Part shown: in pieces, positions 12,701 through 40,072 of the stretch
Numbering within the stretch: position 1 is the first letter of the stretch
Layout: each line of letters opens with the position of its first letter
Assembly (NCBI GenBank): GCA_946610035.1
Contig: CAMOCC010000018.1
Span: 1-42,237, forward strand
From: an uncultured Verrucomicrobiota bacterium
Lineage (GTDB): Bacteria > Verrucomicrobiota > Kiritimatiellia > RFP12 > UBA1067
Length of the DNA stretch: 42,237 nucleotides
Direction of reading: 5' to 3'
Program-made: the position numbers and the translations under genes
Notes under the pieces: model-generated
Seen by the model: only the letters and a program-made list of their open reading frames with translations
The model's database searches: none
Told to the model about the DNA's origin: nothing

Positions 12701-12709
12701 TGATATAAT
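12701..12709 (+). promoter_or_regulatory. Extended -10 promoter of the HAD gene, predicted leaderless
   Basis: TGA-TATAAT (hexamer 12704-12709) ends 6 bases before the ATG at 12716. Transcription would begin at or next to the A of the start codon. No Shine-Dalgarno is present. A weak TTGTGT lies at 12679-12684. Confidence 0.7.
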
Positions 12710-12715
12710 ACGGGA

Positions 12716-13369
12716 ATGAACAAGAAGAACTGGTTTTTCGATCTGGACGGAACGCTGGCGGACACCGACCCCGACATCAGGGCGTCGTGGAAGGCGGCGA
12801 TGGCGGACATCGGCCTCGTGTGCCCCAACTTCGACCGCGATTTCGTGGCAGGTCCGACGCTGGAGGAGATGGCGGCGAAGTTGTTTCCGTCCATATACAC
12901 CCCCGAGCTTGGCGCGCACCTGCGGGAGCGCTTCGGCTATCACTACGACCACGACGGGTTCCCGAATACGAGCGAGTACCCCGGGGTGATTGACGTCGTG
13001 CGCGCGCTCACGTCCGCCGGACACCGCGTGTTCATCGCGACGAACAAGCGCTGGGAAGGGGCGAGTGCGATGTCCGCCCACTTCGGCTGGGACCGCGTCT
13101 TCGAACGCCTCTACACGGGCGACATGCACCGCGACAATCCGGCGATAGGGAAGATGCGAAAGCCCGAGCTCTTGGCGTTCATCATGCGCGAAATCGGCGC
13201 AAAGGCGTCGGAATGCGTCATGGTCGGCGATACCATCAACGACTTCGAGGCGGCGAAGAAGAACGGCATAAGGTCCGTCGCCGTTGCATGGGGCTACGGG
13301 ACGGAAGAGGAGCGCGCCAAGGCTGACGCGCGTGTCGCCGCTCCGGCGGAGCTTTTGAACCTTGCCTGA
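12716..13369 (+). CDS. HAD-superfamily hydrolase, phosphoglycolate-phosphatase-like
   Basis: 217 residues with the complete HAD motif set: motif I DLDGTLADT near the N-terminus, motif II as FIATNKR, and motifs III/IV as GDTINDFEAAKKNGIRSVAV near residue 180, followed by WGYG. The helical cap between motifs I and II fits subfamily IA, as in Gph and PpaX. It is expected to remove phosphate from a small metabolite such as 2-phosphoglycolate; substrate cannot be fixed by sequence. It converges with the glycosyltransferase gene, whose stop is only 15 bp away. Confidence 0.85.
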   Translation: MNKKNWFFDLDGTLADTDPDIRASWKAAMADIGLVCPNFDRDFVAGPTLEEMAAKLFPSIYTPELGAHLRERFGYHYDHDGFPNTSEYPGVIDVVRALTSAGHRVFIATNKRWEGASAMSAHFGWDRVFERLYTGDMHRDNPAIGKMRKPELLAFIMREIGAKASECVMVGDTINDFEAAKKNGIRSVAVAWGYGTEEERAKADARVAAPAELLNLA

Positions 13370-13384
13370 GCGGTCGAACGCCGC

Positions 13385-14398
13385 CTACTTCTGCCAGTTG
13401 GTTCGGTCGACTGGCTTGGGCTTGATGCCGACTAGTTTGGAGATGACGCCGAGTCCGTAGATCCAGAGCGTGGCGTAGCATACGGGCAGATGCCAGAGGG
13501 CGAGGGACTTCGAGCCGCGCGGGGCGTGGACGGCGAAGAGCAGCGCCTGGACCGCCAGCGGCAGGACCAAGGCCGCCGATAAGATGAAAAGAAGAACGCC
13601 TCCCTTGCGCTGGCTGTTCCAAGGGTATGTGCGCTCCTTGGTCTTTGCGAAGAAGAGGAAGTCCCTGATGCGGCGACGCTGCTTGCGGACGAAGTCTCCG
13701 AACCTTGCGCAGTAGAGATGTATGATGGACGTGTCAACCTTCGCTATCGCCCCGCATCCTCCCGTCGCAGCGGCCGCCGCGACGTCGATGTCGAAGAAGT
13801 ACGGGGACCACGAGACCTTGTCCAGTATCCTGCGACGGAAGATGAATCCGTTCGCGCCGATGGTCGGAATCTTGTCCTTCAAGACGAGCTTCATCCATCC
13901 GTCTCGCCTTTCGACGGGGATGTCGAGGCCGGTCCATCGTCCCGTCACGGCGCAGTATCTGTCGTAGTTGCCGACGAAGAGGCACACGGGGTCGTTCATT
14001 CCGAGTTCCGCGAAGTAGCGCGTCAGCGACGGATCGGAGGGGCGCGCGGAGTACCGGACCGGTTCCGTGGCGAAGACGGCGTCGTCCTCGAAGGGTGCCG
14101 TCATCTTCCTGAGCCATCCGCTATCAGGAAGAATGTTGTCGGAGTCAATGAGCGCTATCAAGTCGCCATGGGATGCCTTAATGCCGGCCGTCTTCCCGGC
14201 CTCGCCTGTCTTTAGCGGATTCTCGCACACGACGTCCACACCGTTCGCCCTTGCGATTTCGAGGGTGCGGTCCGAGGAGCCTGCGTCTGCCACGACGATT
14301 TCGTATCCGCCGCGCGGAAAGTCCTGTGAAAGAATCGCCTTGAGGCATTCGTCAAGTGTCCGTTCGGAGTTGAGCGTGGGTATGATTATCGAAAGCAT
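13385..14398 (-). CDS. Family 2 glycosyltransferase with C-terminal membrane segments
   Basis: 337 residues. The N-terminal GT-A domain begins MLSIIIPTLNSERTL, followed by VVADAGSSDRT and LIDSDNI (the metal-binding D-x-D). The last 80 residues have two hydrophobic segments (LLFILSAALVLPLAVQALLFA and the LPVCYATLWIYGLGVI region) that should hold the enzyme at the inner membrane. It is the last gene of the ddl-ftsQ-ftsA-ftsZ-mutL run, 7 bp after mutL. It is likely to transfer a sugar from a nucleotide donor to a lipid-linked or surface glycan; the acceptor is unknown. Confidence 0.88.
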   Translation of the reverse strand: MLSIIIPTLNSERTLDECLKAILSQDFPRGGYEIVVADAGSSDRTLEIARANGVDVVCENPLKTGEAGKTAGIKASHGDLIALIDSDNILPDSGWLRKMTAPFEDDAVFATEPVRYSARPSDPSLTRYFAELGMNDPVCLFVGNYDRYCAVTGRWTGLDIPVERRDGWMKLVLKDKIPTIGANGFIFRRRILDKVSWSPYFFDIDVAAAAATGGCGAIAKVDTSIIHLYCARFGDFVRKQRRRIRDFLFFAKTKERTYPWNSQRKGGVLLFILSAALVLPLAVQALLFAVHAPRGSKSLALWHLPVCYATLWIYGLGVISKLVGIKPKPVDRTNWQK

Positions 14399-14405
14399 GG
14401 CTTGG

Positions 14406-16244
14406 CTAGTCGATTGCGAACTTGCGGTTCAGTTCCTGGTTTGAAATGAAGAAGAGCGTCGGCTTGCCGCGCGGACAGATATACGGCATCCGCGACGCGC
14501 ACAGGTCCTCGACGAGCTGCACGGCGCCGTCCTCGGTGATGGCGCGAGAGGCCCCGGCGTAGGATTTGGCGACGGACTTCGCGATCAGCTCCTCGCGCCA
14601 GCGCGCGCCGCCGCGCCTCGTGCCCGACTCGGCGAGGTCGCGGGCTATCGTGGAGAGGACTGCACCGGCGGAGAGTCCGCCCAGGAGCTGCGGCACGGCG
14701 TCCACCTTGAAGGTGTCCCTGCCGAACGGCTCCACGGCGAAGCCCATGGACCGGACGGCGGGCAGTGCCGCCGTGAGGCGAGCGGCGTCCCCCGGCGAAA
14801 GGTGGATCGTCTCCGGGATGAGAAGTGTCTGCGAGGCGGCGTCCGAGGCGGCGGAGGATGCGACGAGCCGTTCGTAGACGATCCGCTCGCGCGCGGCGCG
14901 TGGATTCACGGTGACGAGCCCGGCATCGGTCTCAAGGAGGAGGAAGCCCCTCGCCGTCTGCGCAAGGTATCGGAACCACTTCCACGGACGCGACGCAGTG
15001 GAGTCCGGCGCGACGGCGAACTCCACCTGGACGGGCGCGGCGATCGGTGCTGCGGACGGCTTGTCCGCAACCGCCGCCGTCGGTGCGAGGAAGGGTGCCG
15101 GCACCGGTGCAGGCGTCTCGGGCTTTATGGTCGGTTGAACGGAAAGATGTTCGGCGGACTGGATCGCCTCCGGCGCGACTGCGGGTGCGGGCGCGGGAGG
15201 AGTGGAGTGATCCGCAATCGGCACAGCCGGCGCGGACACCGAAGTCTGCGTCCGCAGGGCCCGCTCGATAGCCGTCATTATCGCCATCTTGACGGCGGAG
15301 TTGTCCCTGAACCTCACTTCGCGCTTCGTCGGATGGACGTTGACGTCGACCTGGTTCGGCGGCAGGTCGATGAAGAGTATCACGGCCGGCCTGACGTCGC
15401 CGGGGCGGCGCGGATACGCTTCGCGAAGGGCGTATGATATCGAGGCCGCCGTCGCGGGGCGTCCGTTGACGAACACATACTGGTCGCGGCGGGTGGGCTG
15501 GTTGAGGTTCGGCCTCTCCACATAGCCCGTCACGCGGACGCCGCCGTTGCCGTCGTCCGGTATTTGCAGGAGCTCGGCGGTGAAGTCCTTGCCGAAGAGG
15601 TCGAGGACGCGGTCGGAGATGGCGGCGGACGGTGCGAGCCGGTAGAGTTCGCGCCCGTCCACCGTGAGCGAGAAGCCGATCGACGGGTGGGCGAGGGCGT
15701 GGACGGTGAACACCTGCTTTACGTGGTTCTCCTCTGTGACGTAGGCCCTGAGGAACTTGCGCCTTGCGGGGACGTTGCAGAAGAGGTCCCTGACCTCGAC
15801 AAGCGTCCCTGGCGGACACCCTGCGGAGCGCACCTCTGCCAGCTCGCCGGCGTTGACCTGCACGAGCGTACCCTCGTCCGAATCGCGGCGGCGCGTCGTT
15901 ATGGTGAATCGTGAGACGGACGCGATGGACGGGATGGCCTCGCCCCTGAAGCCGAGCGTGTCGATCTCCTCAATGTCGTTCACGTCGAGGATCTTCGACG
16001 TCGCCTGGCGTTCGAGCGAGAGGACCGCGTCGTCGCGCGTCATGCCGCATCCGTCGTCCTGCACGGCGACGAGCTTGCGTCCGCCCTGGGTGATCGTTAT
16101 GCGTATCGTCCGCGCGCCCGCGTCGATTGCGTTCTCGACCAGCTCCTTCACGACGGACGCCGGACGCTCCACGACCTCGCCCGCCGCGATCTTGTTCGCG
16201 ACGTGGAGGGGGAGTACGCGGATGTGTCCGTCGCGCGGCGTCAT
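14406..16244 (-). CDS. mutL: DNA mismatch repair protein MutL
   Basis: 612 residues. The GHKL ATPase N-terminus is clear: HVANKIAAGEVVERPASVVKELVENAIDAGA, DDGCGM, then TLGFRGEAIPSIASV. A Pro/Ala-rich linker (about 335-420) leads to the C-terminal dimerisation domain, ending in YICPRGKPT. At 447-453 the sequence reads NPRAARE where endonuclease-type MutL has DQHA-x-x-E, so Asp, Gln and His are all replaced. This suggests no metal-dependent nicking. ATG at 16244 is one base from the ftsZ stop (16246-16248), so mutL is translated as part of the division operon. Confidence 0.95.
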   Translation of the reverse strand: MTPRDGHIRVLPLHVANKIAAGEVVERPASVVKELVENAIDAGARTIRITITQGGRKLVAVQDDGCGMTRDDAVLSLERQATSKILDVNDIEEIDTLGFRGEAIPSIASVSRFTITTRRRDSDEGTLVQVNAGELAEVRSAGCPPGTLVEVRDLFCNVPARRKFLRAYVTEENHVKQVFTVHALAHPSIGFSLTVDGRELYRLAPSAAISDRVLDLFGKDFTAELLQIPDDGNGGVRVTGYVERPNLNQPTRRDQYVFVNGRPATAASISYALREAYPRRPGDVRPAVILFIDLPPNQVDVNVHPTKREVRFRDNSAVKMAIMTAIERALRTQTSVSAPAVPIADHSTPPAPAPAVAPEAIQSAEHLSVQPTIKPETPAPVPAPFLAPTAAVADKPSAAPIAAPVQVEFAVAPDSTASRPWKWFRYLAQTARGFLLLETDAGLVTVNPRAARERIVYERLVASSAASDAASQTLLIPETIHLSPGDAARLTAALPAVRSMGFAVEPFGRDTFKVDAVPQLLGGLSAGAVLSTIARDLAESGTRRGGARWREELIAKSVAKSYAGASRAITEDGAVQLVEDLCASRMPYICPRGKPTLFFISNQELNRKFAID

Positions 16245-16245
16245 G

Positions 16246-18551: not shown

Positions 18552-19447
18552 TGGAAGGAGCCTCCTTCGTTGGGCAGATGGCTGAAGCGACCGGGTTCGA
18601 CCACGATGTACGTGCCTCGCTCGGCGTTCAGGTTCTCGTTGATTGCCTTGTTGATTTCCACAAGCGTCTTCGTGAGCGTCGGCTGCGCCGGGTCGGACGG
18701 ATCGTCCAGCATCCTCCACTGGATCTGCACATGGCTGTAGTTCCTCAGTGTGACCATCATGTTCACCGCGTTGGAGATCGAAATCTCGGGATTCTGGAGG
18801 TATGGCAGGTTCTCGCGGTTTGCTATCTCGATGAAGCGCAGGGCGGAAAGCGCATGGCCTTCCAGCCGTCCGCCCCTTGGCGCGGACGGCGAGCTGTCGA
18901 TGATGACCGGCAGCGTCTGGGTGTCCTTCTTCGACGAGTCGAATACGACGCCGTCGATGTCCACGACGTCCCACGTCGCGAAGGCTATGTCGCGTCCGTT
19001 CCGCTTCACCGTCGTCCGCTTCAGGTTCACCCGCGCGACGGGCTCGCGCTCCAGGAGCGCAACTTCCAGCCTGTTGGGGAGGTGCCGCGTGACGCTGAGG
19101 TCCTTGACTATCGGGTAGTCCTTCAGGACGCGCTTGCGAATGGCGCCGAAGTCAATGAGAGCGAGGTTGCATCCATTCGTGAGCCCGAACCATTCGCGGA
19201 CGATGTCCTCTGAGATGTGCGCCGTCGCGGAGACCGAGACCTGGCTTTTAACGTCTGTTACGACGCATTGCTCGATCCATAGGTCCCTCAGCTTGCACAC
19301 GCCGATCCACGTCCCCCAAAGCGCCGCGCCGACGACCGTGAATGCGACGACGAACTTGATTGCGCGCCTCGCCCCATCGGCGCCGTCGCCCCCGACAGCC
19401 TTCAGCGCCGCATGCAGCCTGCGCGGCCTTCTCTTGTTCGCCCTCAT
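18548..19447 (-). CDS. ftsQ: Cell-division protein FtsQ (POTRA domain)
   Basis: 299 residues: a short basic cytoplasmic tail (ANKRRPRRLH), one membrane helix (about 31-52), then a POTRA-like domain containing VSATAHISEDIVREWFGL and IRKRVLKDYPIVKDLSVTRHLPNRLEVALLEREPVA. The stretch DYPIVKDLSVTRHLPNRL is a clear FtsQ hallmark. It is longer than many FtsQ proteins owing to its C-terminal beta domain. It sits between ddl and ftsA as in other dcw clusters, with 4-bp overlaps on both sides. It scaffolds the FtsBL subcomplex in the periplasm. Confidence 0.9.
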   Translation of the reverse strand: MRANKRRPRRLHAALKAVGGDGADGARRAIKFVVAFTVVGAALWGTWIGVCKLRDLWIEQCVVTDVKSQVSVSATAHISEDIVREWFGLTNGCNLALIDFGAIRKRVLKDYPIVKDLSVTRHLPNRLEVALLEREPVARVNLKRTTVKRNGRDIAFATWDVVDIDGVVFDSSKKDTQTLPVIIDSSPSAPRGGRLEGHALSALRFIEIANRENLPYLQNPEISISNAVNMMVTLRNYSHVQIQWRMLDDPSDPAQPTLTKTLVEINKAINENLNAERGTYIVVEPGRFSHLPNEGGSFQ

Positions 19448-20355
19448 GTCCGGTCGCACGTTGCGGAGTTGAGGATGCGTTCGCAGACGCCCGCGAACGT
19501 AAGGCCCGTGCGCATCCCGGCCTGCGGGACGAGCGAGTGGGACGTGAACCCGGGCGAAGTGTTCAGCTCGAGGACGAACGGCGAGCCGTCCGGCGCAACG
19601 CGGAAGTCCACGCGCGTCACCCCGCGGCAGCCGAGCGCGCGCCATGCGTCGACGGCGACGGACTTTATGCGCTCCTCGATTGCACGGTCCGCCGGGTCTG
19701 CGGAGTCGGCGAGGAAGGGGTATCGTGTCTCTGACGAGTTGTACTTCTCCTCGTAGCCGTACCAGCCGCCCTTGGCGACGATCTCTAGCGCCGGAAGGGG
19801 CTCGCCGTCGATGAGCCCGACGGTCATTTCGCGGCCGGGGATGTACTCCTCTACAATCGCCTCGCGCCCGTCAAGCTCAAGGCACTTTGCGACGGCCTCG
19901 CGGTAGCCGGCTTCGTCCTTCACGAGGTACACGCCTACGGAGCTTCCGTCGCGCGGAACCTTCACGACGACGGGGTAGGCGGAGGGCGCTTCTGCGTCGA
20001 CGCTCGTCACTACGCGCCACTTCGCCGTCGGGACGTGCGCCGCATCAAGGAGGCGCTTCGTCTCTATCTTGTCCATCGCAAGGCGCGATGCCTTCGCGCC
20101 CGGACCCGTATACGGGATGCCGCGCGCGTCCAGCGCCGCCTGCACGCCGCCGTTCTCGCCCCATCCGCCGTGTAGCGCAATGTACACCGCGTCCATGCCG
20201 TCCGGAAGGACGCCAAGGTCGTCCTTGTCGAGAATGACAGGGAAAACTTCATATTTCCCAAGACTTTTGAGCGCTTCTGCAACGTTTTTCCCGCTGACAA
20301 GCGACACCTCGCGCTCGCTGGAGGTGCCGCCCATGAGAACTGCTATTTTTTTCAT
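19444..20355 (-). CDS. ddl: D-alanine--D-alanine ligase
   Basis: 303 residues, the DdlB size. It starts MKKIAVLMGGTSSEREVSLVSG, followed by ALHGGWGENG, the ATP-grasp lysine region YPVVVKVPRDGSSVG and metal-ligand region TRVDFRVAPDGSPFVLELNTSPGFT. It makes the D-Ala-D-Ala dipeptide later joined by MurF. The ATG at 20355 is preferred over upstream starts because the chain then begins at the family's conserved strand and lies 7 bases after a TATAAT. It is the promoter-proximal gene of the division operon and diverges from murC-murB. Confidence 0.95.
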   Translation of the reverse strand: MKKIAVLMGGTSSEREVSLVSGKNVAEALKSLGKYEVFPVILDKDDLGVLPDGMDAVYIALHGGWGENGGVQAALDARGIPYTGPGAKASRLAMDKIETKRLLDAAHVPTAKWRVVTSVDAEAPSAYPVVVKVPRDGSSVGVYLVKDEAGYREAVAKCLELDGREAIVEEYIPGREMTVGLIDGEPLPALEIVAKGGWYGYEEKYNSSETRYPFLADSADPADRAIEERIKSVAVDAWRALGCRGVTRVDFRVAPDGSPFVLELNTSPGFTSHSLVPQAGMRTGLTFAGVCERILNSATCDRT

Positions 20356-20362
20356 CCCCAAT

Positions 20363-20371
20363 ATTATATCA
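20363..20371 (-). promoter_or_regulatory. Extended -10 promoter of ddl, predicted leaderless
   Basis: Read on the minus strand the sequence is TGA-TATAAT, with the hexamer at 20368-20363, and ends 7 bases before the ddl ATG at 20355. There is no Shine-Dalgarno. It lies back to back with the murC promoter. Confidence 0.7.
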
Positions 20372-20376
20372 TAAGA

Positions 20377-20385
20377 TGGTATAAT
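20377..20385 (+). promoter_or_regulatory. Extended -10 promoter of murC-murB, nearly leaderless
   Basis: TGG-TATAAT (hexamer 20380-20385) ends 11 bases before the ATG at 20397, giving a leader of about five bases and no room for a ribosome site. The two divergent -10 hexamers are only 11 bp apart, so polymerases at ddl and murC must compete. Confidence 0.65.
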
Positions 20386-20396
20386 GTTCACCCGCA

Positions 20397-22412
20397 ATGA
20401 TTGGAAAGAATGTACATTTTATCGGAATAGGCGGCGTCGGCATGGCCGGACTCGCCGTCCTCCTGAAGGCCGAAGGGGCCGATGTGACGGGCTGCGACCT
20501 CCATGCGACGGCGCGCACACGCTGGCTGGAGTCGCTAGGGATACCCGTCGCCGTCGGGCACAGCCCCGAGCACGTCCGCGACGCCGACATCGCCGTCGCC
20601 ACCCCGGCGGTCCATCCCGACAACCCCGAGCGCATGGCCGCGAAGCGCGTCATAACGCGCGGGGAGCTCCTGGCGGACCTCGTCTCCTCCCGCGAATCCA
20701 TAGCCGTCTGCGGCTCCCACGGCAAGACGACCACATCTACCTTCATCGCCAAGCTGCTCCTCGCACTCGGCGAAAGGGTCAGCTGGGCGATAGGCGGCGA
20801 AACGGGCGACTTCCCCGTCGCCGGGGCGAACGGAGGCGTCCTCGTCGTCGAGGCGGACGAGTCGGACGGCACGCTTGCCCTCTACCACGCGACCACGCTT
20901 GTCGTCACCAACTGCGAATACGACCACCCCGACCACTTCAAGACCCCGGCCGACTACTTCGCCTGCTTCGACGCCGCCCGACGCAACGCCAGATATGTCA
21001 TCGAAGCCGAGGAGGTGTGGAATTGCTTCTTGTCGACGGGGACAGTCCCCCCCGCCCCCATGGGGACAGTCCCCCCCGCCCCCATGGGGACAGTCCCCCC
21101 CGCCCCCATGGGGACAGTCCCCCCCACCCCCATGGGGACAGTCCCCATGTCTTTGGGTGAAAGTTTGCAAAAAATCGCGAAATTTGCATTTTTCGAGCAG
21201 CTGCCCGAGCACAACAAGAAGAACGCCCTTGCAGCGGTTGCGGTTGCGCTTCAGCGGGGACACTCCCCTGAGGCGATTGCCAAAGTCCTTCCCGGGGTGG
21301 TTTCGGTCCTTCCGGACAGACGTTTCCAGATGCTTGCTCCAGGCGTCTATACGGACTACGCCCACCATCCGACGGAGATGAAATGCGCTGTATCCATGGC
21401 GCGGCGGATTTGCCGAGGCGTTCTTCGCGTTCTTTTCCAGCCTCATCGCTATTCGCGGACAAAGGCACTTGTCCACGACTTCCCGGCGGCGTTCGCCGAG
21501 GCGGACGAGGTGGTTCTCTGTCCGACATACGCGGCGTTCGAATCGCCCGTCGAAGGCGGCGACATCGCCGATCTCTATGCAGAATGCAGACGGGGACTGT
21601 CCCCGGGGGGGCATGGGGCGAGCCGGTCGCCGCGCATTTTCCTCGCCCAGTCCTGCGCCGAGGCGTGGGAGCACGCCCGCAACTCGATGGTCGAGGGCGA
21701 TATAACGCTTCTCCTCGGTGCGGGCGACATCATCGGCCTTGCGCCGCAGGTCGAACGCGACATGATGCATCCAGGCGTTTCGCACCGCAATGTCCGCCGC
21801 ATCCTTATCGGTGCCGGATCCAACACATGGCGGAGCGACTTGAAGCTGGATGTCGAGTATGTCAAGACTGACTCCCCCGCAGGACGTCCCGGTGCATCGC
21901 TCGGCATCCCTTGGATGGCGGGCATCCCGGGGACCATAGGCGGATGGGTGAAGATGAATGCGGGGGCGTTCGGACATTCCATATCAGAGGTCATTTCGCG
22001 CGTAAAGGTGGATGGCGAATGGAGGGCGGCGGCGGACTGCGGCTTTGGCTACAGGACATCCGCCATAATCGGCGGAATCGAGGATATTGAGCTTGATTCC
22101 GCCAATTACGCCGCCGCAAAGGCCGATACTACCGACTACCTTGCAAGGCGCAGGCGCTTCCCGTCCGGGACGAAGGGCAGCGTCTTCAAGAATCCGCCCG
22201 GAGACTATGCGGGACGCCTTCTGGAGGAGGCGGGATGCAAGGGACTCCGCGTCGGAGGCGCCTATGTATGGGAGGAGCATGCGAATGTCATCGTCTCAGG
22301 ACCCGATGCGACGCCGAGCGACTTTCTGGCTCTTGCCCGCCTCATGCGCGAGCGGGTTCGCTTCCGCTTCGGCGTCGTCCTCGAGCCGGAAGTGAAGGGA
22401 CTCGAACCATGA
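20397..22412 (+). CDS. murC-murB: MurC-MurB fusion: UDP-MurNAc--L-alanine ligase / UDP-MurNAc dehydrogenase
   Basis: 671 residues. Residues 1 to about 455 are MurC: HFIGIGGVGMAGLA (UDP-sugar domain), CGSHGKTTTS (ATP loop, about 106-114), EADESDG, LPEHNKKNALAAVAV and TDYAHHPTEM. From about 467 the chain is type II MurB: ILIGAGSNTWRSD, MAGIPGTIGGWVKMNAGAFG, and KGSVFKNPPGDYAGRLLEEAG with the catalytic Ser, ending in FGVVLEPEV. The MurB part is about 205 residues instead of about 300 and lacks much of the first FAD-binding region. Residues about 215-251 are a repeat insertion (G-T-V-P-P-A-P-M units), and another palindrome encodes RGLSPGG near 400. It makes two successive steps of peptidoglycan precursor synthesis in the cytoplasm. 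Its stop overlaps birA. Confidence 0.93.
   Translation: MIGKNVHFIGIGGVGMAGLAVLLKAEGADVTGCDLHATARTRWLESLGIPVAVGHSPEHVRDADIAVATPAVHPDNPERMAAKRVITRGELLADLVSSRESIAVCGSHGKTTTSTFIAKLLLALGERVSWAIGGETGDFPVAGANGGVLVVEADESDGTLALYHATTLVVTNCEYDHPDHFKTPADYFACFDAARRNARYVIEAEEVWNCFLSTGTVPPAPMGTVPPAPMGTVPPAPMGTVPPTPMGTVPMSLGESLQKIAKFAFFEQLPEHNKKNALAAVAVALQRGHSPEAIAKVLPGVVSVLPDRRFQMLAPGVYTDYAHHPTEMKCAVSMARRICRGVLRVLFQPHRYSRTKALVHDFPAAFAEADEVVLCPTYAAFESPVEGGDIADLYAECRRGLSPGGHGASRSPRIFLAQSCAEAWEHARNSMVEGDITLLLGAGDIIGLAPQVERDMMHPGVSHRNVRRILIGAGSNTWRSDLKLDVEYVKTDSPAGRPGASLGIPWMAGIPGTIGGWVKMNAGAFGHSISEVISRVKVDGEWRAAADCGFGYRTSAIIGGIEDIELDSANYAAAKADTTDYLARRRRFPSGTKGSVFKNPPGDYAGRLLEEAGCKGLRVGGAYVWEEHANVIVSGPDATPSDFLALARLMRERVRFRFGVVLEPEVKGLEP
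21038..21148. repeat. 24-bp minisatellite (about 4.6 units) inside murC
   Basis: Four full 24-bp units start at 21038, 21062, 21086 and 21110, and a partial one at 21134. Each begins with the palindrome GGGGACAGTCCCC and adds a C-rich spacer ending in CAT. Units 1-3 are identical; unit 4 has one change (Ala to Thr). Because 24 is a multiple of 3 the array stays in frame, encoding G-T-V-P-P-A-P-M repeats. The minus strand carries long G runs. Confidence 0.95.
21592..21604. repeat. GGGGACTGTCCCC palindrome inside murC
   Basis: A single perfect copy encodes GLSP in the MurC C-terminal domain, followed by a G-run and a short non-conserved segment (GGHGASRSPR). Confidence 0.8.
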
Positions 22413-23185
22413 ACTGGAGAATCCACCACAAGGCGACAACCGACTCGACGAACAGGGACGCCCTTGGAGGCACCCATGGAGACGTCTACACCGCCGACCG
22501 GCAGACGGCTGGAAGGGGTCGCCTGGACCACAAGTGGCTTTCGCCGCCCGGAGAGAACCTGATGATGTCGGCGGTCCTCTCCGTGGAGGGACTGTCCCCC
22601 GAACGCGCGGCGACAATCCCGATCGCCGTCGGCCTCGCCGTCATAGAGGGTCTGTCCCCGTTGGTTTCCAATCGGAAGCCGGGGGGACTGTCCCTGAAGT
22701 GGCCCAACGATGTACTTTGTGGCGGACGCAAACTGGCGGGCATTCTATGCGAGAGGCACGGCGACAATGTCATCGTCGGCATAGGCGTAAACGTTAATCA
22801 GCGAAAATTCGCTCCTGAAATCGAAAAAACTGCAGTTTCCCTCGTCCAATTGGGGACTGTCCCCATGGGGGGTAGGGGGACTGTCCCCGTCGGTTTTGTG
22901 CGGGACAGGGTGCTGGAGGCGTTGTCGGGGGTGTATGGGGAGTGGAAGGCAGGGGGACTGTCCCCGTTGATGGACAGGATATCCGCCGTCGATTGGCTGA
23001 AGGGGAGGATGGTGGGCGTTTTGCAGACGGATGCGGACCCGGAGCCCGTGTCGGGCGTCTGCGGCGGCATTGCCTCCGACGGCTCGCTGCTTGTCTCCGG
23101 CCGGCGGATATGGGCGGGCGAGGCGCATGTCGCGTCCGTTCAGCAGGGCGGACATCTTGCGACCCAGGCGAACGATTTGGTATAA
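22409..23185 (+). CDS. birA: Biotin--[acetyl-CoA-carboxylase] ligase, BirA catalytic type
   Basis: 258 residues, without the N-terminal DNA-binding domain of E. coli BirA, so not a repressor. The motifs are TDSTN, QTAGRGRLDHKWLSPPG (biotinyl-AMP loop), LKWPNDVLCGGRKLAGILCE and VIVGIGVNVNQ. A C-terminal SH3-like domain follows. It attaches biotin to carrier lysines such as AccB. The ATG overlaps the murC-murB stop (ATGA). Six palindromic GGGAC-W-GTCCC motifs lie in the coding sequence (22587-22965), producing GLSP, GLSL and GTVP peptides. The TAA stop is itself part of the -10 hexamer of the next gene. Confidence 0.92.
   Translation: MNWRIHHKATTDSTNRDALGGTHGDVYTADRQTAGRGRLDHKWLSPPGENLMMSAVLSVEGLSPERAATIPIAVGLAVIEGLSPLVSNRKPGGLSLKWPNDVLCGGRKLAGILCERHGDNVIVGIGVNVNQRKFAPEIEKTAVSLVQLGTVPMGGRGTVPVGFVRDRVLEALSGVYGEWKAGGLSPLMDRISAVDWLKGRMVGVLQTDADPEPVSGVCGGIASDGSLLVSGRRIWAGEAHVASVQQGGHLATQANDLV
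22587..22965. repeat. Six GGGACTGTCCCC-type palindromes within birA
   Basis: Copies, some imperfect, lie at about 22587-22599, 22646-22659, 22682-22694, 22852-22864, 22876-22888 and 22953-22965. Three stand on or near conserved catalytic-domain segments (before ERAAT, before LVSN, and directly before KWPND). Three are in less conserved C-terminal positions. They are read in different frames as GLSP/GLSL or GTVP. Confidence 0.85.
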
Positions 23186-23186
23186 T
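23178..23186 (+). promoter_or_regulatory. Extended -10 promoter of the sugar transferase gene, overlapping the birA stop
   Basis: TGG-TATAAT (hexamer 23181-23186) contains the birA TAA stop (23183-23185). It ends 9 bases before the GTG start at 23196, so the transcript would be almost leaderless. Confidence 0.65.
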
Positions 23187-23195: not shown

Positions 23196-23795
23196 GTGAA
23201 AAGGATTGTTGAAACTCTGCTTGTAATTGTGACGGCGCCCGTATGGGTGCCGCTGTCGGTTGTCGTCGCCTTGTCAATAGCCTTGGACATGGGGCGGCCG
23301 GTGATCTTCACGCAGGTGCGAGCCGGTAAGGGCGGTCGTCCGTTCACCCTCCTCAAGTTCCGCACCATGCGCTCGGGCGAAGGGAGCGATGTGGAGCGCA
23401 CCACGCGGCTTGGACGATTCCTTCGTGCGACATCCCTGGACGAGCTGCCGCAGTTGCTGCACGTGCTTTCGGGAAAGATGTCTCTCGTGGGGCCGCGTCC
23501 TCTCCCAGTCGCCTATCTGCCGCGCTATTCCGACTTTCAGGCTCGCCGGCACGAGGTCCGCCCCGGCATCACCGGATGGGCGCAGGTGAACGGACGCAAC
23601 GCCATAACATGGGAGCGAAAGTTCGAGCTGGACGTATGGTACGTCGACCACCGCTCGCCTTGGCTTGACGTAAAGATACTCTGGATGACGGTCTTCCGCA
23701 CGGCGGCGTGCTCCGGCGTCAACGCGTCCGCAACGGAAACCATGTCGGAGTTCATGCCCGCCCCGTCCGAAAGTAAACGAACGTTCCAAAAGTAA
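23196..23795 (+). CDS. PglC/WcaJ-type polyprenyl-phosphate phosphoglycosyltransferase
   Basis: 199 residues, the short monotopic form. It has one re-entrant hydrophobic N-terminal segment (IVETLLVIVTAPVWVPLSVV), then FTQVRAGKGGRPFTLLKFRTMR, RLGRFLRATSLDELPQLLHVLSGKMSLVGPRPLP (with the catalytic Asp-Glu pair), and RPGITGWAQVNGRN. It transfers a sugar-phosphate from UDP-sugar to undecaprenyl phosphate, starting a surface glycan. The GTG at 23196 is used because the first hydrophobic segment needs it. The C-terminus EFMPAPSESKRTFQK appears altered: a second copy of the EFMP-x-PS end, with its own TAA, sits at 26118-26144. Confidence 0.9.
   Translation: MKRIVETLLVIVTAPVWVPLSVVVALSIALDMGRPVIFTQVRAGKGGRPFTLLKFRTMRSGEGSDVERTTRLGRFLRATSLDELPQLLHVLSGKMSLVGPRPLPVAYLPRYSDFQARRHEVRPGITGWAQVNGRNAITWERKFELDVWYVDHRSPWLDVKILWMTVFRTAACSGVNASATETMSEFMPAPSESKRTFQK
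23746..23769. repeat. Left copy of a 24-bp direct repeat (3' end of the sugar transferase gene)
   Basis: This sequence, coding for S-E-F-M-P-A-P-S, matches 22 of 24 bases at 26116-26139. The two copies flank the 23770-26115 segment. A further 10-mer, GCCCCGTCCG, is present at 23760-23769 and 26108-26117. Confidence 0.75.
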
Positions 23796-26146: not shown

Positions 26147-26155
26147 TGATATAAT
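26147..26155 (+). promoter_or_regulatory. Extended -10 promoter of obgE, predicted leaderless
   Basis: TGA-TATAAT (hexamer 26150-26155) ends 7 bases before the obgE ATG at 26163; no Shine-Dalgarno. Confidence 0.7.
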
Positions 26156-26162: not shown

Positions 26163-27323
26163 ATGAAAGCAAAGACGTTTATCGATCAGGTGGAGGTGCT
26201 GGTGAGGTCCGGGCGCGGCGGCGACGGCGCGATGTCCATGCGGCGCGAGGCGCTCGTCGAGTTCGGCGGGCCCGACGGCGGCGACGGCGGACGCGGCGGA
26301 GACGTCGTCTTCAAGGCGTCCGAGCACGTCAACTCGCTCCTCAGCCTCTACTACGACCCGAAGTGCTACGCGCAGGACGGCGGTCCCGGGCAGGGGCAGA
26401 AGATGTACGGCAAGCGCGGGAAGGACCTCGTCGTCCCCGTGCCTCTCGGAACCGAGGTGTACGACGTCGACACGGGCCTTCTCGTCGCCGACATAACAGA
26501 GCCGGGGCAGTCCGTCGTCGTCGCGAAGGGCGGTGCTGGCGGCTTTGGCAACGTCCACTTCAAGTCGTCCGTCAACCAGGCGCCGACCGAGCACACGCCC
26601 GGCGGCGAGCCGGAGGAGCGCCGGCTGCGCCTTGAGCTGAAGACGATTGCCGATGCAGGGCTTCTCGGATTCCCAAACGCCGGCAAGAGCTCGCTCCTGA
26701 CGGCGCTCTCCTCGGCTACGCCCAAGATCGCCAGCTATCCTTTCACGACGCTCAATCCGATGGTCGGGACGATTCTCTACGCCGACTATGCGAAGATTGC
26801 GATGGCGGACGTGCCGGGCATCATCGAGGGCGCGGCGAAAGGCGTGGGCCTCGGCCTCGCCTTCCTCAAGCACCTCGAGCGTTCGAAGGTCCTCGTCTAC
26901 GTCCTCGACATGGCGGGGACTGACAACCGCGAGCCATGGAGCGACTACGAAATACTCAAGAAGGAGATCGACGAGTATTCCGTGGAGCTGGCCTCGCGAC
27001 CCTGCCTTGTCGTCGCGAACAAGATGGACGCTGAGGCGGCGAAGGAGAACTACGATCGCTTCGTGAAGGAGACGGGAGTGGAGCCGATCCGCATCTCCTG
27101 CGAGACGCGCGAGGGACTCGACGAGTTCAAGGAGCGCCTCAGGGGGATAGTGAACCCGAAGACGAAGTTCCACCACACCCACGCCGAACACGGCATGGAC
27201 CTCAAGGACATGCCCGACACGACCGGCGAGGAGATCCCCGCCGACGCGCTGAAGTTCGCGACCTTCCTGAAGCTCGAGAAGCCCAAGGCGAAGTCCCATC
27301 CCAGCCGCGGGAACATCCACTAG
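26163..27323 (+). CDS. obgE: Ribosome-assembly GTPase ObgE/CgtA
   Basis: 386 residues. The Gly-rich Obg domain (1-157) has VRSGRGGDGAMSMRREALVE and GGPDGGDGGRGGDVVF. The G domain follows with GFPNAGKSSLL (G1), FTTLNP (G2 region), DVPGIIEG (G3), NKMD (G4) and a late ISC/SCE segment (G5). The tail is short, with no OCT domain. Obg GTPases bind the large ribosomal subunit and couple its maturation to cell state. The ATG is fixed by the family N-terminus and lies 7 bases after the -10, with no leader. Confidence 0.95.
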   Translation: MKAKTFIDQVEVLVRSGRGGDGAMSMRREALVEFGGPDGGDGGRGGDVVFKASEHVNSLLSLYYDPKCYAQDGGPGQGQKMYGKRGKDLVVPVPLGTEVYDVDTGLLVADITEPGQSVVVAKGGAGGFGNVHFKSSVNQAPTEHTPGGEPEERRLRLELKTIADAGLLGFPNAGKSSLLTALSSATPKIASYPFTTLNPMVGTILYADYAKIAMADVPGIIEGAAKGVGLGLAFLKHLERSKVLVYVLDMAGTDNREPWSDYEILKKEIDEYSVELASRPCLVVANKMDAEAAKENYDRFVKETGVEPIRISCETREGLDEFKERLRGIVNPKTKFHHTHAEHGMDLKDMPDTTGEEIPADALKFATFLKLEKPKAKSHPSRGNIH

Positions 27324-32714: not shown

Positions 32715-32723
32715 TGGTATAAT
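32715..32723 (+). promoter_or_regulatory. Extended -10 promoter of ribBA, predicted leaderless
   Basis: TGG-TATAAT (hexamer 32718-32723) ends 7 bases before the ATG at 32731. There is no room for an FMN riboswitch and no Shine-Dalgarno. Confidence 0.7.
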
Positions 32724-32730
32724 AACAAAC

Positions 32731-33918
32731 ATGTTCAATACTGTAGAAGAATGCCTTGAGTCGTTGAAAAGGGGCGAGATCGTCCTGGTGACGGACGATG
32801 CGGACCGCGAGAACGAGGGGGACTGCATCTGCGCCGCGCAGTTCGCGACGAAGGACAACGTCAATTTCATGGCCACGCATGCGCGCGGCCTCATCTGCAT
32901 GCCCATGAGCGCCGAATGGTGCGAAAGGCTCGACCTTCCGCAGATGGTGGTGCAGAACACCGACAACCACCAGACGGCCTTCACGGTCTCCATCGACGCG
33001 GCGACGACGACGACGGGGATCTCCGCCGCCGAAAGGTCCGTCACCGCCCTCGCCTGCGCCAGGGACGGCGTGAAGCCCGAGGACTTCAGGCGCCCCGGGC
33101 ACATGTTCCCGCTCAGGGCGCGCGAAGGCGGCGTCCTGAGGCGCGCGGGGCACACGGAGGCGACGGTGGATCTCTGCCGCCTCGCCGGACTCAAGGAGAT
33201 GGGGCTCTGCTGCGAGATCATGAAGGAAGACGGTTCCATGGCCAGGCTTCCCGACGTCACCGCCTTCGCGAAGGAGCACGGACTTAAGATGACGACCATC
33301 GCCGATCTGATCGCCTACAGGCGCAAGCACGACAGGCTCGTCGAACTCGTGGAGGAAGTGGACATGCCGACCGACCACGGACACTTCCGCCTCAAGATGT
33401 ACCGCAGCCGCATTTCCGGCCTCGAGCACCTCGCCCTCGTCAAGGGCGACGTCGCCGACGGCGAACCGGTCCTCGTAAGGGTTCACTCCGAATGCTTCAC
33501 AGGCGACGTCCTCGGCTCTGAGCGCTGCGACTGCGGTCCGCAGCTCCACACCGCGATGGAGATGATCGAGCGCGAGGGCAGGGGCGCTGTTCTCTACATG
33601 CGCCAGGAGGGGCGCGGCATCGGGCTTGCCAACAAGCTCCATGCATACAAGAAGCAGGAGCAGGGCATGGACACCGTTGAGGCGAACGTCGCGCTCGGCT
33701 TCCCGCCCGACCTACGCGACTACGGCGAGGGCGCGCAGATGCTCGTGGACCTCGGCGTCCACAAGCTCAGGCTACTTACGAACAATCCGTGCAAGATCGC
33801 GGGACTCGAGGGCTACGGACTCGAAATAGTCGAGCGTGTGCCCATCGTCATTCCGCCCAACGTATACGACAGGCGCTACCTCGACACTAAGCGCGAGAAG
33901 ATGGGCCACTTGATGTAG
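32731..33918 (+). CDS. ribBA: Bifunctional RibBA: DHBP synthase / GTP cyclohydrolase II
   Basis: 395 residues. The RibB half (1 to about 200) has [50 protein letters not shown] and [11 protein letters not shown]. The RibA half has [18 protein letters not shown] (three zinc Cys), [18 protein letters not shown] and [17 protein letters not shown]. Together they begin both branches of riboflavin synthesis. ATG 32731 is set by the family N-terminus. Riboflavin genes often have FMN riboswitches, but the leader here is essentially zero, so control must be elsewhere. Confidence 0.96.
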
Positions 33919-33942
33919 GCGGTGTCGCCCGGCCGTGAAATA

Positions 33943-33951
33943 TGGTACAAT
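33943..33951 (+). promoter_or_regulatory. Extended -10 promoter of uppS
   Basis: TGG-TACAAT (hexamer 33946-33951) lies 16 bases before the ATG at 33968, giving a leader of about 10 bases. A GAG triplet within it is the only possible ribosome contact. Confidence 0.5.
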
Positions 33952-33967
33952 ATACTACAAGTTGAGA

Positions 33968-34669
33968 ATGGAAAAGGTTCCGGAACATATTGCAATTATA
34001 ATGGATGGTAACGGCAGGTGGGCGAAGGCTCACGGCCGTCCCAGGATCATGGGCCATCGCGCGGGGGCGGATGCGCTCGACCGCGTTATGCACTATTGCA
34101 AGGACGTCGGGATAAAGTACCTGACCGTCTACGCATTCTCGACGGAGAACTGGAAGAGGTCCGACGAGGAGGTCTCGGGCCTGATGAGGCTCCTCTCCCG
34201 CTACATCAGGACAAAGGAGAAGCAGCTCGTCAAGGACGGCGTGAGGTTCCGCGTCATCGGACGGCGTACCGACCTTTCGGAAAAGCTGCAGAGGGAGATC
34301 GCCGCCCTCGAGGAGAAGACGAAGGGAGGCGAGTTCACCCTGCTGGTGGCGCTCTCCTACGGCGGACGCGACGAGATCGTTCGGGCTGCGCTCAAGTTCG
34401 CCGCGAAGGGCCTGGACGCCCTTGGACGGCTGGACGATCTGGAAGGCGCCTTCTCCGAATGCATGGACGCGCCGGACGTGCCCGATCCTGACTTGATAAT
34501 CCGCACGAGCGGCGAGCTGAGGACGTCGAACTTCCTCCTCTGGGAGTCGGCGTACAGCGAATACTATTTCACGGACGTCCTGTGGCCGGACTTCGGCAGG
34601 GACGAATTCGACAAGGCGCTCGCGAGCTATGCGACGCGTGAAAGGCGGAAAGGGGGCCGCCTCAAATGA
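33968..34669 (+). CDS. uppS: Undecaprenyl diphosphate synthase
   Basis: 233 residues from ATG 33968 (MEKVPEHIAIIMDGNGRWAK). The IMDGNGRWAK and GHRAGADA blocks, TVYAFSTENWKRS, ALSYGGRDEI and the closing DLIIRTSGELRTSNFLLWESAYSEYYF are complete for a cis-prenyltransferase. It makes the C55 lipid that carries peptidoglycan and glycan units across the membrane. It overlaps cdsA by 4 bp. An earlier in-frame ATG at 33935 overlaps the promoter and is not needed. Confidence 0.96.
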   Translation: MEKVPEHIAIIMDGNGRWAKAHGRPRIMGHRAGADALDRVMHYCKDVGIKYLTVYAFSTENWKRSDEEVSGLMRLLSRYIRTKEKQLVKDGVRFRVIGRRTDLSEKLQREIAALEEKTKGGEFTLLVALSYGGRDEIVRAALKFAAKGLDALGRLDDLEGAFSECMDAPDVPDPDLIIRTSGELRTSNFLLWESAYSEYYFTDVLWPDFGRDEFDKALASYATRERRKGGRLK

Positions 34670-36731: not shown

Positions 36732-36735
36732 CGAT

Positions 36736-37878: not shown

Positions 37879-37881
37879 GGG

Positions 37882-38547
37882 TCATTTCCTGCTGCGGAGA
37901 TACGCCTTGAGGCCCTCTGCGCGGAGGCGGCAGGCGGGGCATTTCCCGCAACCGCCGCCGGGGATGCCGCGATAGCATGTGACGGTCTCGTTCTTGATGA
38001 GATCGAGTATGCCCAGGGAGTCCGCCAGCGCCCATTCATCCTCCTTCGTCTTGTTCATGAAGGGGGTGACGATCTTGAAGGGCCATAGCATGGCGAGGCG
38101 CATTGACCTCTCCTGGGCTCGGATGAAGGGTGCGCGGCAGTCGGGGTAGCCGGAGTAGTCCGTCTGCGAGACTCCCGTCCACACCTCCGTTGCGCCGAGG
38201 CTCTTCGCCCACACGCCCGCCGAGAGGAGGAAGAAGGCGTTGCGTCCCTCAACGACCGTGGAGGGACATTCCATGCCGGCCTTGCGCGTTATGGGCGCGC
38301 TGTGGTCGAGAAGGGCGTTTGTCGTAAGGTGCCTGTAGAAGTCCAGCCGGACGATCTTGTGGTCCTTCACGCCGAATTTGCGCGCCAGCGCGCGTGCGAA
38401 CTTCGTCTCGACGGCGTGGCGCTGACCGTAGTTGAACGTTATCGCGGCCACGTTCGAGGGCCCGTGCCTGTCGCAGGCGAGCCTGAGGCAGAGCGCGCTG
38501 TCCTGTCCGCCGCTCAATACGACCACTGCTTTCTTGCTGTTTTCCAT
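37882..38547 (-). CDS. queC: 7-cyano-7-deazaguanine synthase QueC
   Basis: 221 residues. VVVLSGGQDSALCL is the PP-loop; AITFNYGQRHAVE, the substrate region GVSQTDYSGYPDCR, and the zinc site CYRGIPGGGCGKCPACRLRAEG are all in place. It converts 7-carboxy-7-deazaguanine to preQ0 for queuosine. QueH, a later enzyme of the pathway, is encoded at 29598. The gene has its own -10 (38560-38555) 7 bases before its ATG. Confidence 0.95.
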   Translation of the reverse strand: MENSKKAVVVLSGGQDSALCLRLACDRHGPSNVAAITFNYGQRHAVETKFARALARKFGVKDHKIVRLDFYRHLTTNALLDHSAPITRKAGMECPSTVVEGRNAFFLLSAGVWAKSLGATEVWTGVSQTDYSGYPDCRAPFIRAQERSMRLAMLWPFKIVTPFMNKTKEDEWALADSLGILDLIKNETVTCYRGIPGGGCGKCPACRLRAEGLKAYLRSRK

Positions 38548-38554
38548 GCCGTTT

Positions 38555-38563
38555 ATTATAGCA
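38555..38563 (-). promoter_or_regulatory. Extended -10 promoter of queC, predicted leaderless
   Basis: On the minus strand TGC-TATAAT (hexamer 38560-38555) ends 7 bases before the ATG at 38547. No preQ1 riboswitch can fit. Confidence 0.7.
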
Positions 38564-38609
38564 TATTGTCATTGCACTTGCCATGGCTTGCCATGGCCGT
38601 AATTCGGCC

Positions 38610-38639
38610 TTGACCTGAGAGGGCAATGCCATGTATAAT
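38610..38639 (+). promoter_or_regulatory. Promoter of the efflux operon, predicted leaderless
   Basis: TTGACC (38610-38615) and TATAAT (38634-38639) are 18 bases apart; the ATG at 38648 is 8 bases after the -10. Confidence 0.7.
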
Positions 38640-38647
38640 ATTACCTT

Positions 38648-40072
38648 ATGAATGTTCAAAGAACCATAACTGCGCTTGCGATCGCCGCGTCGGTCTGCGG
38701 ATGCGGAACGATAAGGTCCGCACGCGAGGCGCAGAGGCGCGTCGAGGCCGATGCGTCTGCCCGCACCTCCGCACGCGTGGACCTCAACGGATTTTCGCTG
38801 GCGCGGCTTGTTGACTTCGCGCTCACAAACCGTCCCTCGATGGTTTCCGCCGCGCTGGCGGTGAAAGATGCCCGTCTTGCGATGAAGGAGATTGCGGCGG
38901 ACGCCCCGCTCGCATCGGAGACGCCGTGGAACGCGCTTGGCGCCGACGTTTCGATGGGCTATTCCGAGAGGTCCGTCGCCAAGCACCTGGAGGACTTCGA
39001 GTTCAAGACGAAGAAGGGGAAGGGGACTGGATCGCTCTCCGTCGACCTCCTCGTCTACGATTTCGGACGCAACGCCGCGCGCGCCCGCGCGCAGGCCGAG
39101 AACGTGCTCGCGGCGGAGAGCGCGCTCGCCCAGGAGGGCTTCCTCGTGTGCGACGAGGTGTCCGCCGCGTATTTCGCGCTTCTGCGCAACGACGCGCTTC
39201 TCGAAGTCGCCGCGACGAACGTCGCGATGTACGCGGAGCACCTGAAGAGGGCGGAGGACCGCCTTTCGCTCGGCGAGGCGATGGAGCTGGACGTCCTGAG
39301 GGCGCGCCTCGACCTCGCCACGGCGAGGGAATCGCTCGTCTCCGCGTCCAACGACGTCGCGACGGCCGGGGCGGAGCTCATGTCCGCCCTCGGCGTGGAC
39401 GCCTCCTCCGGCGACTGCGCGGAGGTGTTCTCGGTTCGGCCCGGCTCGCTCGCCCGCGCCGTGCGCAACCTCTCCGACACCGCAGGCACCTCCGCCGAGC
39501 TGTACGACTTCGGCTCCACAAATGCGCCGGCGCTCGTCATCGCCCGTGCGAAGCTGCGCGCCGCGTCCGCGCAGGTCGACTACGCCGTTGCTGACATGAT
39601 GCCGAACCTTTCGGCGAGCGCGTCGCTGAACTGGACCGATCCGCTCTGGTACTGGCAGTGGGGAGTGTCCGCCTTCGAGTCGCTTTTCACGGGCTTCCGC
39701 CGGACGACGGCTGTCGACCGCGCGGTCGTGGCCATGGAGTCCGCCGCAAGCGCCGTCGAGTCGGAGGAGCTGTCGCTCTCGCGCAGCCTTGAGCTCGCCG
39801 TGGCCGAGCGCGACAGCGCCCGCGCGTCGCTTGCGGCGTCCGTCACCCGGGTCAAGGAGGCGAGGCGCAACCTCGACACCGTAGCCGCGAGGTACGGGGT
39901 TGGCGACGTGTCGCGCGTCGATTTCACGGACGCCGTATCCGACCATGCGGACGCACTGGGGAACCGCGTCCGGGCCTTCTATCGCGGGCAGATCGCGGAG
40001 GCCCACATACTGAAGCTGGTGGGGTCCGCCCCGGACTACCACGAGGAAGTAACCCCTGAGGAGGAGAACTGA
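38648..40072 (+). CDS. TolC/OprM-family outer-membrane efflux lipoprotein
   Basis: 474 residues. A lipoprotein signal ends in VCGC with Cys19 lipidated, as in OprM. The mature protein contains two OEP (outer-membrane efflux) repeats rich in long coiled-coil helices: LVDFALTNRPSMVSAALAV, then VYDFGRNAARARAQAENVLAAE in the first and MMPNLSASASLNWTDP with LFTGFRRTTAVDRAVVAME in the second. It should trimerise into an outer-membrane channel. It shares one base with the adaptor gene (TGATG). Confidence 0.9.
   Translation: MNVQRTITALAIAASVCGCGTIRSAREAQRRVEADASARTSARVDLNGFSLARLVDFALTNRPSMVSAALAVKDARLAMKEIAADAPLASETPWNALGADVSMGYSERSVAKHLEDFEFKTKKGKGTGSLSVDLLVYDFGRNAARARAQAENVLAAESALAQEGFLVCDEVSAAYFALLRNDALLEVAATNVAMYAEHLKRAEDRLSLGEAMELDVLRARLDLATARESLVSASNDVATAGAELMSALGVDASSGDCAEVFSVRPGSLARAVRNLSDTAGTSAELYDFGSTNAPALVIARAKLRAASAQVDYAVADMMPNLSASASLNWTDPLWYWQWGVSAFESLFTGFRRTTAVDRAVVAMESAASAVESEELSLSRSLELAVAERDSARASLAASVTRVKEARRNLDTVAARYGVGDVSRVDFTDAVSDHADALGNRVRAFYRGQIAEAHILKLVGSAPDYHEEVTPEEEN

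What the first reader, a model, noticed from the sequence alone, without database searches (positions are those of the whole stretch)
12701..38648. An extended -10 promoter placed for leaderless translation of many core genes
Eight genes have a TATAAT 6-11 bases before the start codon: the HAD gene (gap 6), ddl (7), obgE (7), ribBA (7), queC (7), the tolC-like gene (8), the pglC-type gene (9) and murC-murB (11). In seven of these the hexamer is preceded by TG-N (TATGATATAAT, TGGTATAAT, TGCTATAAT), and uppS, at 16 bases, has TGG-TACAAT. None of the eight has a ribosome-binding site, while genes inside operons and the pal and nfu genes do. The seen pattern predicts transcripts starting at or within a few bases of the start codon, in a group (PVC) where leaderless expression is little explored. 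The consistent spacing across both strands makes chance unlikely.
Basis: partly seen in the sequence, partly recalled or inferred. Interest (0 to 1): 0.78.

Follow-up and report, generated by a model that had tools for sequence, protein, structure and literature searches.

The report
Promoters set for leaderless gene expression
In this probably gut-dwelling Kiritimatiellae bacterium many genes carry their promoter box only 6 to 11 bases before the start codon and no ribosome-binding site, so their messages very probably begin at or almost at the start codon; this arrangement is known in several other bacterial groups.

Summary
All eight TATAAT boxes lie 6-11 bases before a start codon, seven with TGN. 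In the window's genome TGN-TATAAT-N6-ATG occurs 41 times against 0 for the reversed pattern, and TATAAT-N6..11-ATG 249 against 22. Among 507 called genes in 28% of the genome, TATAAT sits at gap 6-12 in 47, at 0-5 in none, at 13-19 in 2 and at 20-45 in 44 more. A Shine-Dalgarno match precedes 1 of the 47 but 34 of the 44. At gaps 6-7 a pyrimidine precedes ATG in 91 of 106 pattern matches (162 of 416 in other genes), the Y-1/R+1 mark of a transcription start. In ribBA and queC relatives the box keeps its distance to the start codon although the N-terminus varies; in obgE box and Shine-Dalgarno site mostly exclude each other. Best reading: extended -10 promoters making leaderless or 1-5 nt-leader mRNAs. 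The kind is known (Actinobacteria, Deinococcus, and Akkermansia within the PVC group); I found no description for this lineage in the papers searched. No 5' end has been mapped.

The parts
12701..12709 (+). extended -10 TGA-TATAAT, gap 6 to ATG 12716 of HAD phosphatase-type gene (12716-13369)
   Evidence: family
20363..20371 (-). extended -10 TGA-TATAAT, gap 7 to ATG (20355) of ddl (19444-20355)
   Evidence: family
20377..20385 (+). extended -10 TGG-TATAAT, gap 11 to ATG 20397 of murC-murB (20397-22412)
   Evidence: family
23178..23186 (+). extended -10 TGG-TATAAT, gap 9 to GTG 23196 of pglC-type sugar transferase (23196-23795); a TTG at gap 3 is in the same frame
   Evidence: family
26147..26155 (+). 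extended -10 TGA-TATAAT, gap 7 to ATG 26163 of obgE (26163-27323)
   Evidence: family
32715..32723 (+). extended -10 TGG-TATAAT, gap 7 to ATG 32731 of ribBA (32731-33918)
   Evidence: family
38555..38563 (-). extended -10 TGC-TATAAT, gap 7 to ATG (38547) of queC (37882-38547)
   Evidence: family
38634..38639 (+). -10 TATAAT (TG abuts it, no TGN), gap 8 to ATG 38648 of tolC-like gene (38648-40072)
   Evidence: family
33943..33951 (+). TGG-TACAAT, gap 16 to ATG 33968 of uppS (33968-34669); falls between the two promoter classes
   Evidence: family
10500..10508 (+). TGG-TATAAT of the leadered class, gap 36 to ATG 10545 of a NifU-domain gene, with AGGAG at 10531-10535

Best explanation
These are ordinary sigma-70-type promoters with an extended -10 element (TGN-TATAAT), placed so that RNA polymerase starts at the A of the start codon (gaps 6-7, probably many at 8) or 1-5 bases before it (gaps 9-11). 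The mRNA then has no room for a Shine-Dalgarno site and would be translated as leaderless or ultrashort-leader mRNA. The same genome uses the same box at gap 20-45 for leadered genes, most of which have a Shine-Dalgarno match, and Shine-Dalgarno sites before many genes inside operons. Shown from sequence: the placement of the box and its exclusion with Shine-Dalgarno sites. Inferred: the start of transcription at the codon, and leaderless translation.
For: Gap distribution in two classes, with none at 0-5 and 2 of 507 genes at 13-19. Shine-Dalgarno match of 4 or more letters in 1 of 47 near against 34 of 44 far genes, p 9e-15. Near boxes in 7 of 234 genes within 40 nt behind a same-strand gene against 40 of 273 others, p 4e-6, so the box behaves as a promoter rather than a ribosome-binding site. 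TGN in 42 of 47 near genes. At gaps 6-7, C precedes ATG in 78 of 106 whole-genome pattern matches against 102 of 416 genes with neither box. Near and far promoters share their surroundings (TG; A then T after the hexamer; G at position 5, C at position 6) and both have -35 matches above shuffles. With the start nearest the alignment chosen without regard to the box, TGN-TANNNT lies at gap 6-12 in 10 of 50 ribBA and 10 of 30 queC loci (the window's own gene counted in each); four control patterns give 2, 0, 0, 1 and 0, 0, 0, 0. In obgE, 33 of 72 have the box at gap 6-13 and 24 of 72 a Shine-Dalgarno match, both only 2 (p 4e-6, relatedness not corrected). In 20 of 39 genomes of the genus (those present in all three searches) matches total 4233 at gap 6-11 (control 464), 1501 at 12-17 (411) and 1993 at 24-29 (370).
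Against: No transcript 5' end is known. A box at gap 6-12 physically displaces a Shine-Dalgarno site, so its absence is partly forced. At gaps 8-10 a pyrimidine precedes the start in 19 of 29, at 11-12 in 1 of 4, so strict leaderlessness is not supported at the longer gaps. Most relatives lack the box: 40 of 50 ribBA and 20 of 30 queC loci by nearest start, 39 of 72 obgE (17 have neither box nor Shine-Dalgarno match). The gap 12-17 class in the genus still exceeds its control 3.7-fold; second or internal ATGs contribute, but I did not separate them. uppS (gap 16) fits neither class. Genes were called by my own script, not by a standard gene finder.
Confidence: 0.92

Rival explanations
1. Start codons are mis-called: real starts lie further downstream behind Shine-Dalgarno sites, and these are ordinary leadered promoters.
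For: 13 of 47 near genes have a downstream in-frame start within 90 bases with a Shine-Dalgarno match of 4 or more letters; my caller itself preferred later starts for ddl and pglC.
Against: The rate is the same in far genes (11 of 44) and others (112 of 416). In obgE relatives the aligned start codon is used with a Shine-Dalgarno match when the box is absent in 22 of 72. The pyrimidine before ATG would not be expected.
Confidence: 0.04
2. The AT-rich box is a ribosome-recruiting element (A/U-rich site as in Bacteroidetes) in a longer leader, with the promoter further upstream.
For: It sits roughly where a ribosome-binding site would sit, and AT-rich non-Shine-Dalgarno sites exist in other phyla (PMC9581028 passages; PMC5397173 passages).
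Against: It carries TGN and weak -35 matches like the far promoters; it is scarce in genes close behind another gene (7 of 234); far genes have the same box plus a Shine-Dalgarno match (34 of 44).
Confidence: 0.03
3. Chance or base composition: AT-rich upstream regions make TATAAT frequent near starts.
For: TAATAT, partly overlapping TATAAT(AT), is also raised at gap 6-12 (20).
Against: The 18 other permutations give 0-8 at gap 6-12; in the own genome reversed-pattern controls are 0-22 against 41-249.
Confidence: 0.005

Closest known systems
TA-led (leaderless) genes of bacteria, Zheng et al. 2011, PMC3160421 (passages and one section read)
   Same: -10-like box about 10-12 bp before the start, no Shine-Dalgarno, both modes in one genome; TG before the box noted for Lactococcus
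   Different: Their list of groups with leaderless genes names no Verrucomicrobia-type group (the word is absent from the main text); in their high-GC groups the box is a loose TAnnnT, here it is a full TGN-TATAAT at about 62% GC
-10 motif adjacent to ORFs in Deinococcus-Thermus, PMC12340547 (outline and two sections read)
   Same: -10 element next to the start codon acting as promoter, shown there by experiment
   Different: There TANNNT (most often TACACT) at about 6-7 bp in nearly a third of genes; here extended TGN-TATAAT at 6-11 in 47 of 507 called genes (57 with TGN-TANNNT allowed)
Akkermansia muciniphila leaderless TSS, Cappable-seq, PMC4782308 (passages read)
   Same: PVC group; 10% of 886 mapped TSS at the start codon
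   Different: Measured there, predicted here. NCBI taxonomy puts Akkermansia in Verrucomicrobiota and Kiritimatiellia in Kiritimatiellota; GTDB joins them in one phylum (recalled)
Extended -10 (TGn) promoters (recalled)
   Same: TGN before TATAAT in 42 of 47 near genes
   Different: A promoter type known independently of leader length (recalled)

Membership tests
Bacterial leaderless (TA-led) genes | -10-like box at about 10-12 bp before the start codon, above chance | tested here: met
   47 of 507 called genes at gap 6-12; permutation and reversed controls far lower
Bacterial leaderless (TA-led) genes | no Shine-Dalgarno site before the start | tested here: met
   1 of 47 against 34 of 44 far genes; partly forced by the box itself
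Bacterial leaderless (TA-led) genes | mainly first genes of transcription units | tested here: met
   7 of 234 close-behind genes against 40 of 273 others; units inferred from spacing only
Bacterial leaderless (TA-led) genes | mapped 5' end at or within a few nt of the start codon | not testable with these tools
   only the Y-1/R+1 signature at gaps 6-7 supports it
Bacterial leaderless (TA-led) genes | translation of the leaderless mRNA | not testable with these tools
   no ribosome profiling or proteomics
Extended -10 sigma-70 promoters | TGN directly before the -10 hexamer | tested here: met
   7 of 8 in the window; 42 of 47 in the sample
Extended -10 sigma-70 promoters | weak or no need for a -35 element | tested here: inconclusive
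   4 or more of 6 matches to TTGACA at spacer 15-19 in 21 of 47 near genes against 7.5 expected in shuffles: a -35 is often weakly present
A/U-rich ribosome-binding sites | present before operon-internal genes as well | tested here: not met
   7 of 234 genes close behind a same-strand gene

The most novel reading that the evidence does not exclude
In this lineage the extended -10 serves as a joint start signal for transcription and translation, held 6-11 bases from the start codon even when the N-terminus moves. Leader lengths of roughly 6-12 nt, too long for leaderless and too short for Shine-Dalgarno initiation, are selected against, so that promoters fall into two classes.
Probability: 0.45. 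Interest if true: 0.6.

Novelty: new member of a known kind. Interest (0 to 1): 0.45.

Why it matters
It adds a lineage known here mainly from metagenome genomes to the bacteria that mix leaderless and Shine-Dalgarno genes. The full consensus TGN-TATAAT in a genome of about 62% GC makes the leaderless class unusually easy to read from sequence. That would give better start-codon calls for these genomes, a clean test of which leader lengths ribosomes accept, and a set of genes for which promoter and start codon can be predicted together.

Tried and rejected
Rejected: chance and composition; mis-called starts; an A/U-rich ribosome-binding element. Tried without gain: TANNNT without TG is too loose to be useful (101 at gap 6-12, 51 at 13-19). 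Enrichment in the wider phylum was looked at by count against reversed control only, and is uneven: strong in the window's genus and several other genera of its family and in family f2, near parity in others. In genus g41 of family f30 the 17 genomes sum to 713 against 338; no spacing test was done there. A first way of pairing box and start in ribBA and queC (13 of 50 and 12 of 30, controls 3, 0, 1, 1 and 0, 0, 0, 0; starts 0 to 12 codons upstream) took any in-frame start that had a box and is therefore partly circular; the counts in the main argument use the nearest start.

Literature: searches for leaderless with Verrucomicrobia, with Kiritimatiell, with Akkermansia plus transcription start sites, with Planctomycet plus transcription start site and with Verrucomicrobiota, and for Kiritimatiell plus promoter plus Shine-Dalgarno, plus two general ones, listed nothing that I recognised, from titles and starts of abstracts, as describing leaderless genes in Kiritimatiellae. 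The one paper with both words (PMC10783764, passages only) names Kiritimatiellae in a table on the anti-Shine-Dalgarno end and lists Akkermansia as Shine-Dalgarno-scarce. Subscription papers are mostly not held. The GeneMarkS-2 paper (PMC6028130) is not held; its figures are taken from PMC9581028 passages.
Full report
What was checked. The window is contig C18 of a 3.03 Mb draft genome. The ObgE relatives found, the closest full-length ones 90% identical, lie in metagenome genomes whose titles read Kiritimatiellae, Verrucomicrobia, Lentisphaerae or simply uncultured bacterium; many titles name sheep, goat, yak or cattle gut sites. That the window's own organism lives in a gut is inferred from these relatives. 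TATAAT occurs 12 times against 1.66 expected. Eight of the 12 lie 6-11 bases before the start of a long ORF; the best other permutation of the same letters gives one. Gene names: Ddl, ObgE, RibBA, QueC and UppS pass curated NCBIfam cut-offs. MurC-MurB, the TolC family, the EPS/PglC-type sugar transferase and the phosphoglycolate phosphatase match those families below their cut-offs; the last passes general HAD models. Of the other four TATAAT sites, one lies 36 bases before a NifU-domain gene with CAGGAG before its start, and three have no long ORF at this spacing.

Genome-wide counts. In the own genome TGNTATAATN6ATG gives 41 against 0 for the reversed pattern, TATAATN7ATG 65 against 1, TATAATN6-8ATG 159 against 4, TATAATN8-11ATG 140 against 20 and TATAATN6-11ATG 249 against 22. 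A self-trained coding model called 528 genes covering 83% of the sample. Its start choice used coding score and start-codon type only, no upstream signal. 507 of the 528 have 60 upstream bases; the other 21 were dropped.

Two promoter classes. Among the 507 genes TATAAT lies at gap 6-12 in 47, at 0-5 in none, at 13-19 in 2, and 44 more genes have it at 20-45. Without the window the numbers are 41 near and 43 far of 473 genes. A Shine-Dalgarno match of at least four letters is found in 1 of 47 near, 34 of 44 far and 256 of 416 other genes; in a window shifted 30 bases upstream the numbers are 6, 2 and 106. The absence in near genes is partly forced, since the box occupies the place. Near boxes occur in 7 of 234 genes lying within 40 bases behind a same-strand gene and in 40 of 273 others; units were inferred from spacing only. 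With TGN-TANNNT allowed as well, 57 of 507 genes have a near box. Among the 251 genes that look like first genes, exact near and far boxes are equally common, 39 each.

Where transcription starts. The usual distance from a -10 hexamer to the start is about 6-8 intervening bases (recalled). RNA polymerase prefers a pyrimidine at -1 and a purine at +1; Cappable-seq saw this YR mark in all four gut species analysed (PMC4782308, passages). Among whole-genome pattern matches (not gene calls), C precedes ATG in 33 of 41 at gap 6 and 45 of 65 at gap 7. Pooled, a pyrimidine precedes ATG in 91 of 106 against 162 of 416 genes with neither box. Among called genes it is 11 of 14 at gaps 6-7, 19 of 29 at 8-10 and 1 of 4 at 11-12, against 19 of 44 in far genes. 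So a start at the A of ATG is well supported for gaps 6-7; for 9-11 a leader of 1-5 bases is more likely. Near and far promoters share their surroundings: TG before the box, A then T after it, G at position 5 and C at position 6.

Relatives. In obgE, 33 of 72 relatives have TGN-TANNNT at gap 6-13 before the aligned start codon and 24 of 72 have a Shine-Dalgarno match; 2 have both and 17 neither (p 4e-6 for exclusion, relatedness not corrected). Of the 80 loci, five distant ones (L106-L110) and three cut or offset ones (L062, L094, L096) were left out. Whether the genes without the box lie inside operons was not checked. For ribBA I had 50 loci (the 30 best-scoring of 115 genomes searched and 20 more that I picked from other genera and families), and for queC the 30 best-scoring. 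The start was taken as the in-frame start codon nearest to the aligned start, without regard to the box. TGN-TANNNT then lies at gap 6-12 in 10 of 50 and 10 of 30, the window's own gene included in each. Control patterns give 2, 0, 0, 1 and 0, 0, 0, 0; the queC hits hold 8 distinct upstream sequences. In these hits the start lies 0 to 5 codons (ribBA) and 0 to 3 codons (queC) upstream of the aligned position while the gap stays at 6-11. Offsets come from ungapped extrapolation of the alignment. The box thus keeps its distance to the start codon although the N-terminus varies. Most loci, 40 of 50 and 20 of 30, have no such box.

Distribution. In 115 genomes of the order all have TATAATN6-11ATG matches, but the excess over control is uneven: 188 to 1 in one genome of the same genus, 63 to 0 in one of family f2, near parity in some of f3, f4 and f52 and in genus g112 of the window's own family. 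In 194 genomes of the phylum as grouped by the tool the excess is mostly modest elsewhere. In the 20 of 39 genus genomes shared by three searches, totals for equal-width gap classes are 4233 (6-11), 1501 (12-17) and 1993 (24-29), with controls 464, 411 and 370; 6-11 exceeds 12-17 in all 20, and 12-17 lies below 24-29 in 19. So the dip is seen in the genus, but it is not empty: raw ATG counts include second and internal ATGs, which I did not separate.

Rivals. Mis-called starts are unlikely: downstream starts with a Shine-Dalgarno match are as common in near genes (13 of 47) as in others (112 of 416). A ribosome-recruiting A/U element should also precede operon-internal genes and need not carry TGN. 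Chance is excluded by the controls.

What is known. Leaderless genes with a -10 box about 10-12 bp before the start were predicted in 207 of 953 bacterial genomes, in a list of groups without Verrucomicrobia-type bacteria (PMC3160421, section read). Later work, as cited in PMC9581028 (passages), predicted leaderless transcription in 21.6% of bacterial species. The -10 element next to ORFs was shown to act as promoter in Deinococcus (PMC12340547, two sections read). In the PVC group, 10% of 886 high-confidence TSS of Akkermansia muciniphila were leaderless (PMC4782308, passages); NCBI taxonomy has Akkermansia in Verrucomicrobiota and Kiritimatiellia in Kiritimatiellota. So the mechanism is known and the lineage is the new part. 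I found no description for Kiritimatiellae in the held library; this says nothing about papers not held.

Verdict. Confirmed observation, supported interpretation, new member of a known kind. The most interesting residue is the two-class placement, with 2 of 507 genes at gap 13-19, and the box keeping its distance to the start codon; both are measured in sequence, and their cause is inferred.

Noticed in passing
window 20355-20397: ddl (-) and murC-murB (+) start 41 bases apart, with two back-to-back extended -10 boxes between them; both promoters are predicted leaderless and could hardly be occupied at once. A similar close divergent pair lies in L142 (62 bases between genes).
   Followed up: no
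window 33943-33968: uppS has TGG-TACAAT at gap 16, between the two classes, with only a weak purine stretch before ATG.
   Followed up: no
downstream of TATAAT in L111-L150 and the window: Both promoter classes share A then T, G at position 5 and C at position 6 after the hexamer; its meaning (discriminator or start-site preference) is unexplained.
   Followed up: partly
   Followed up: partly
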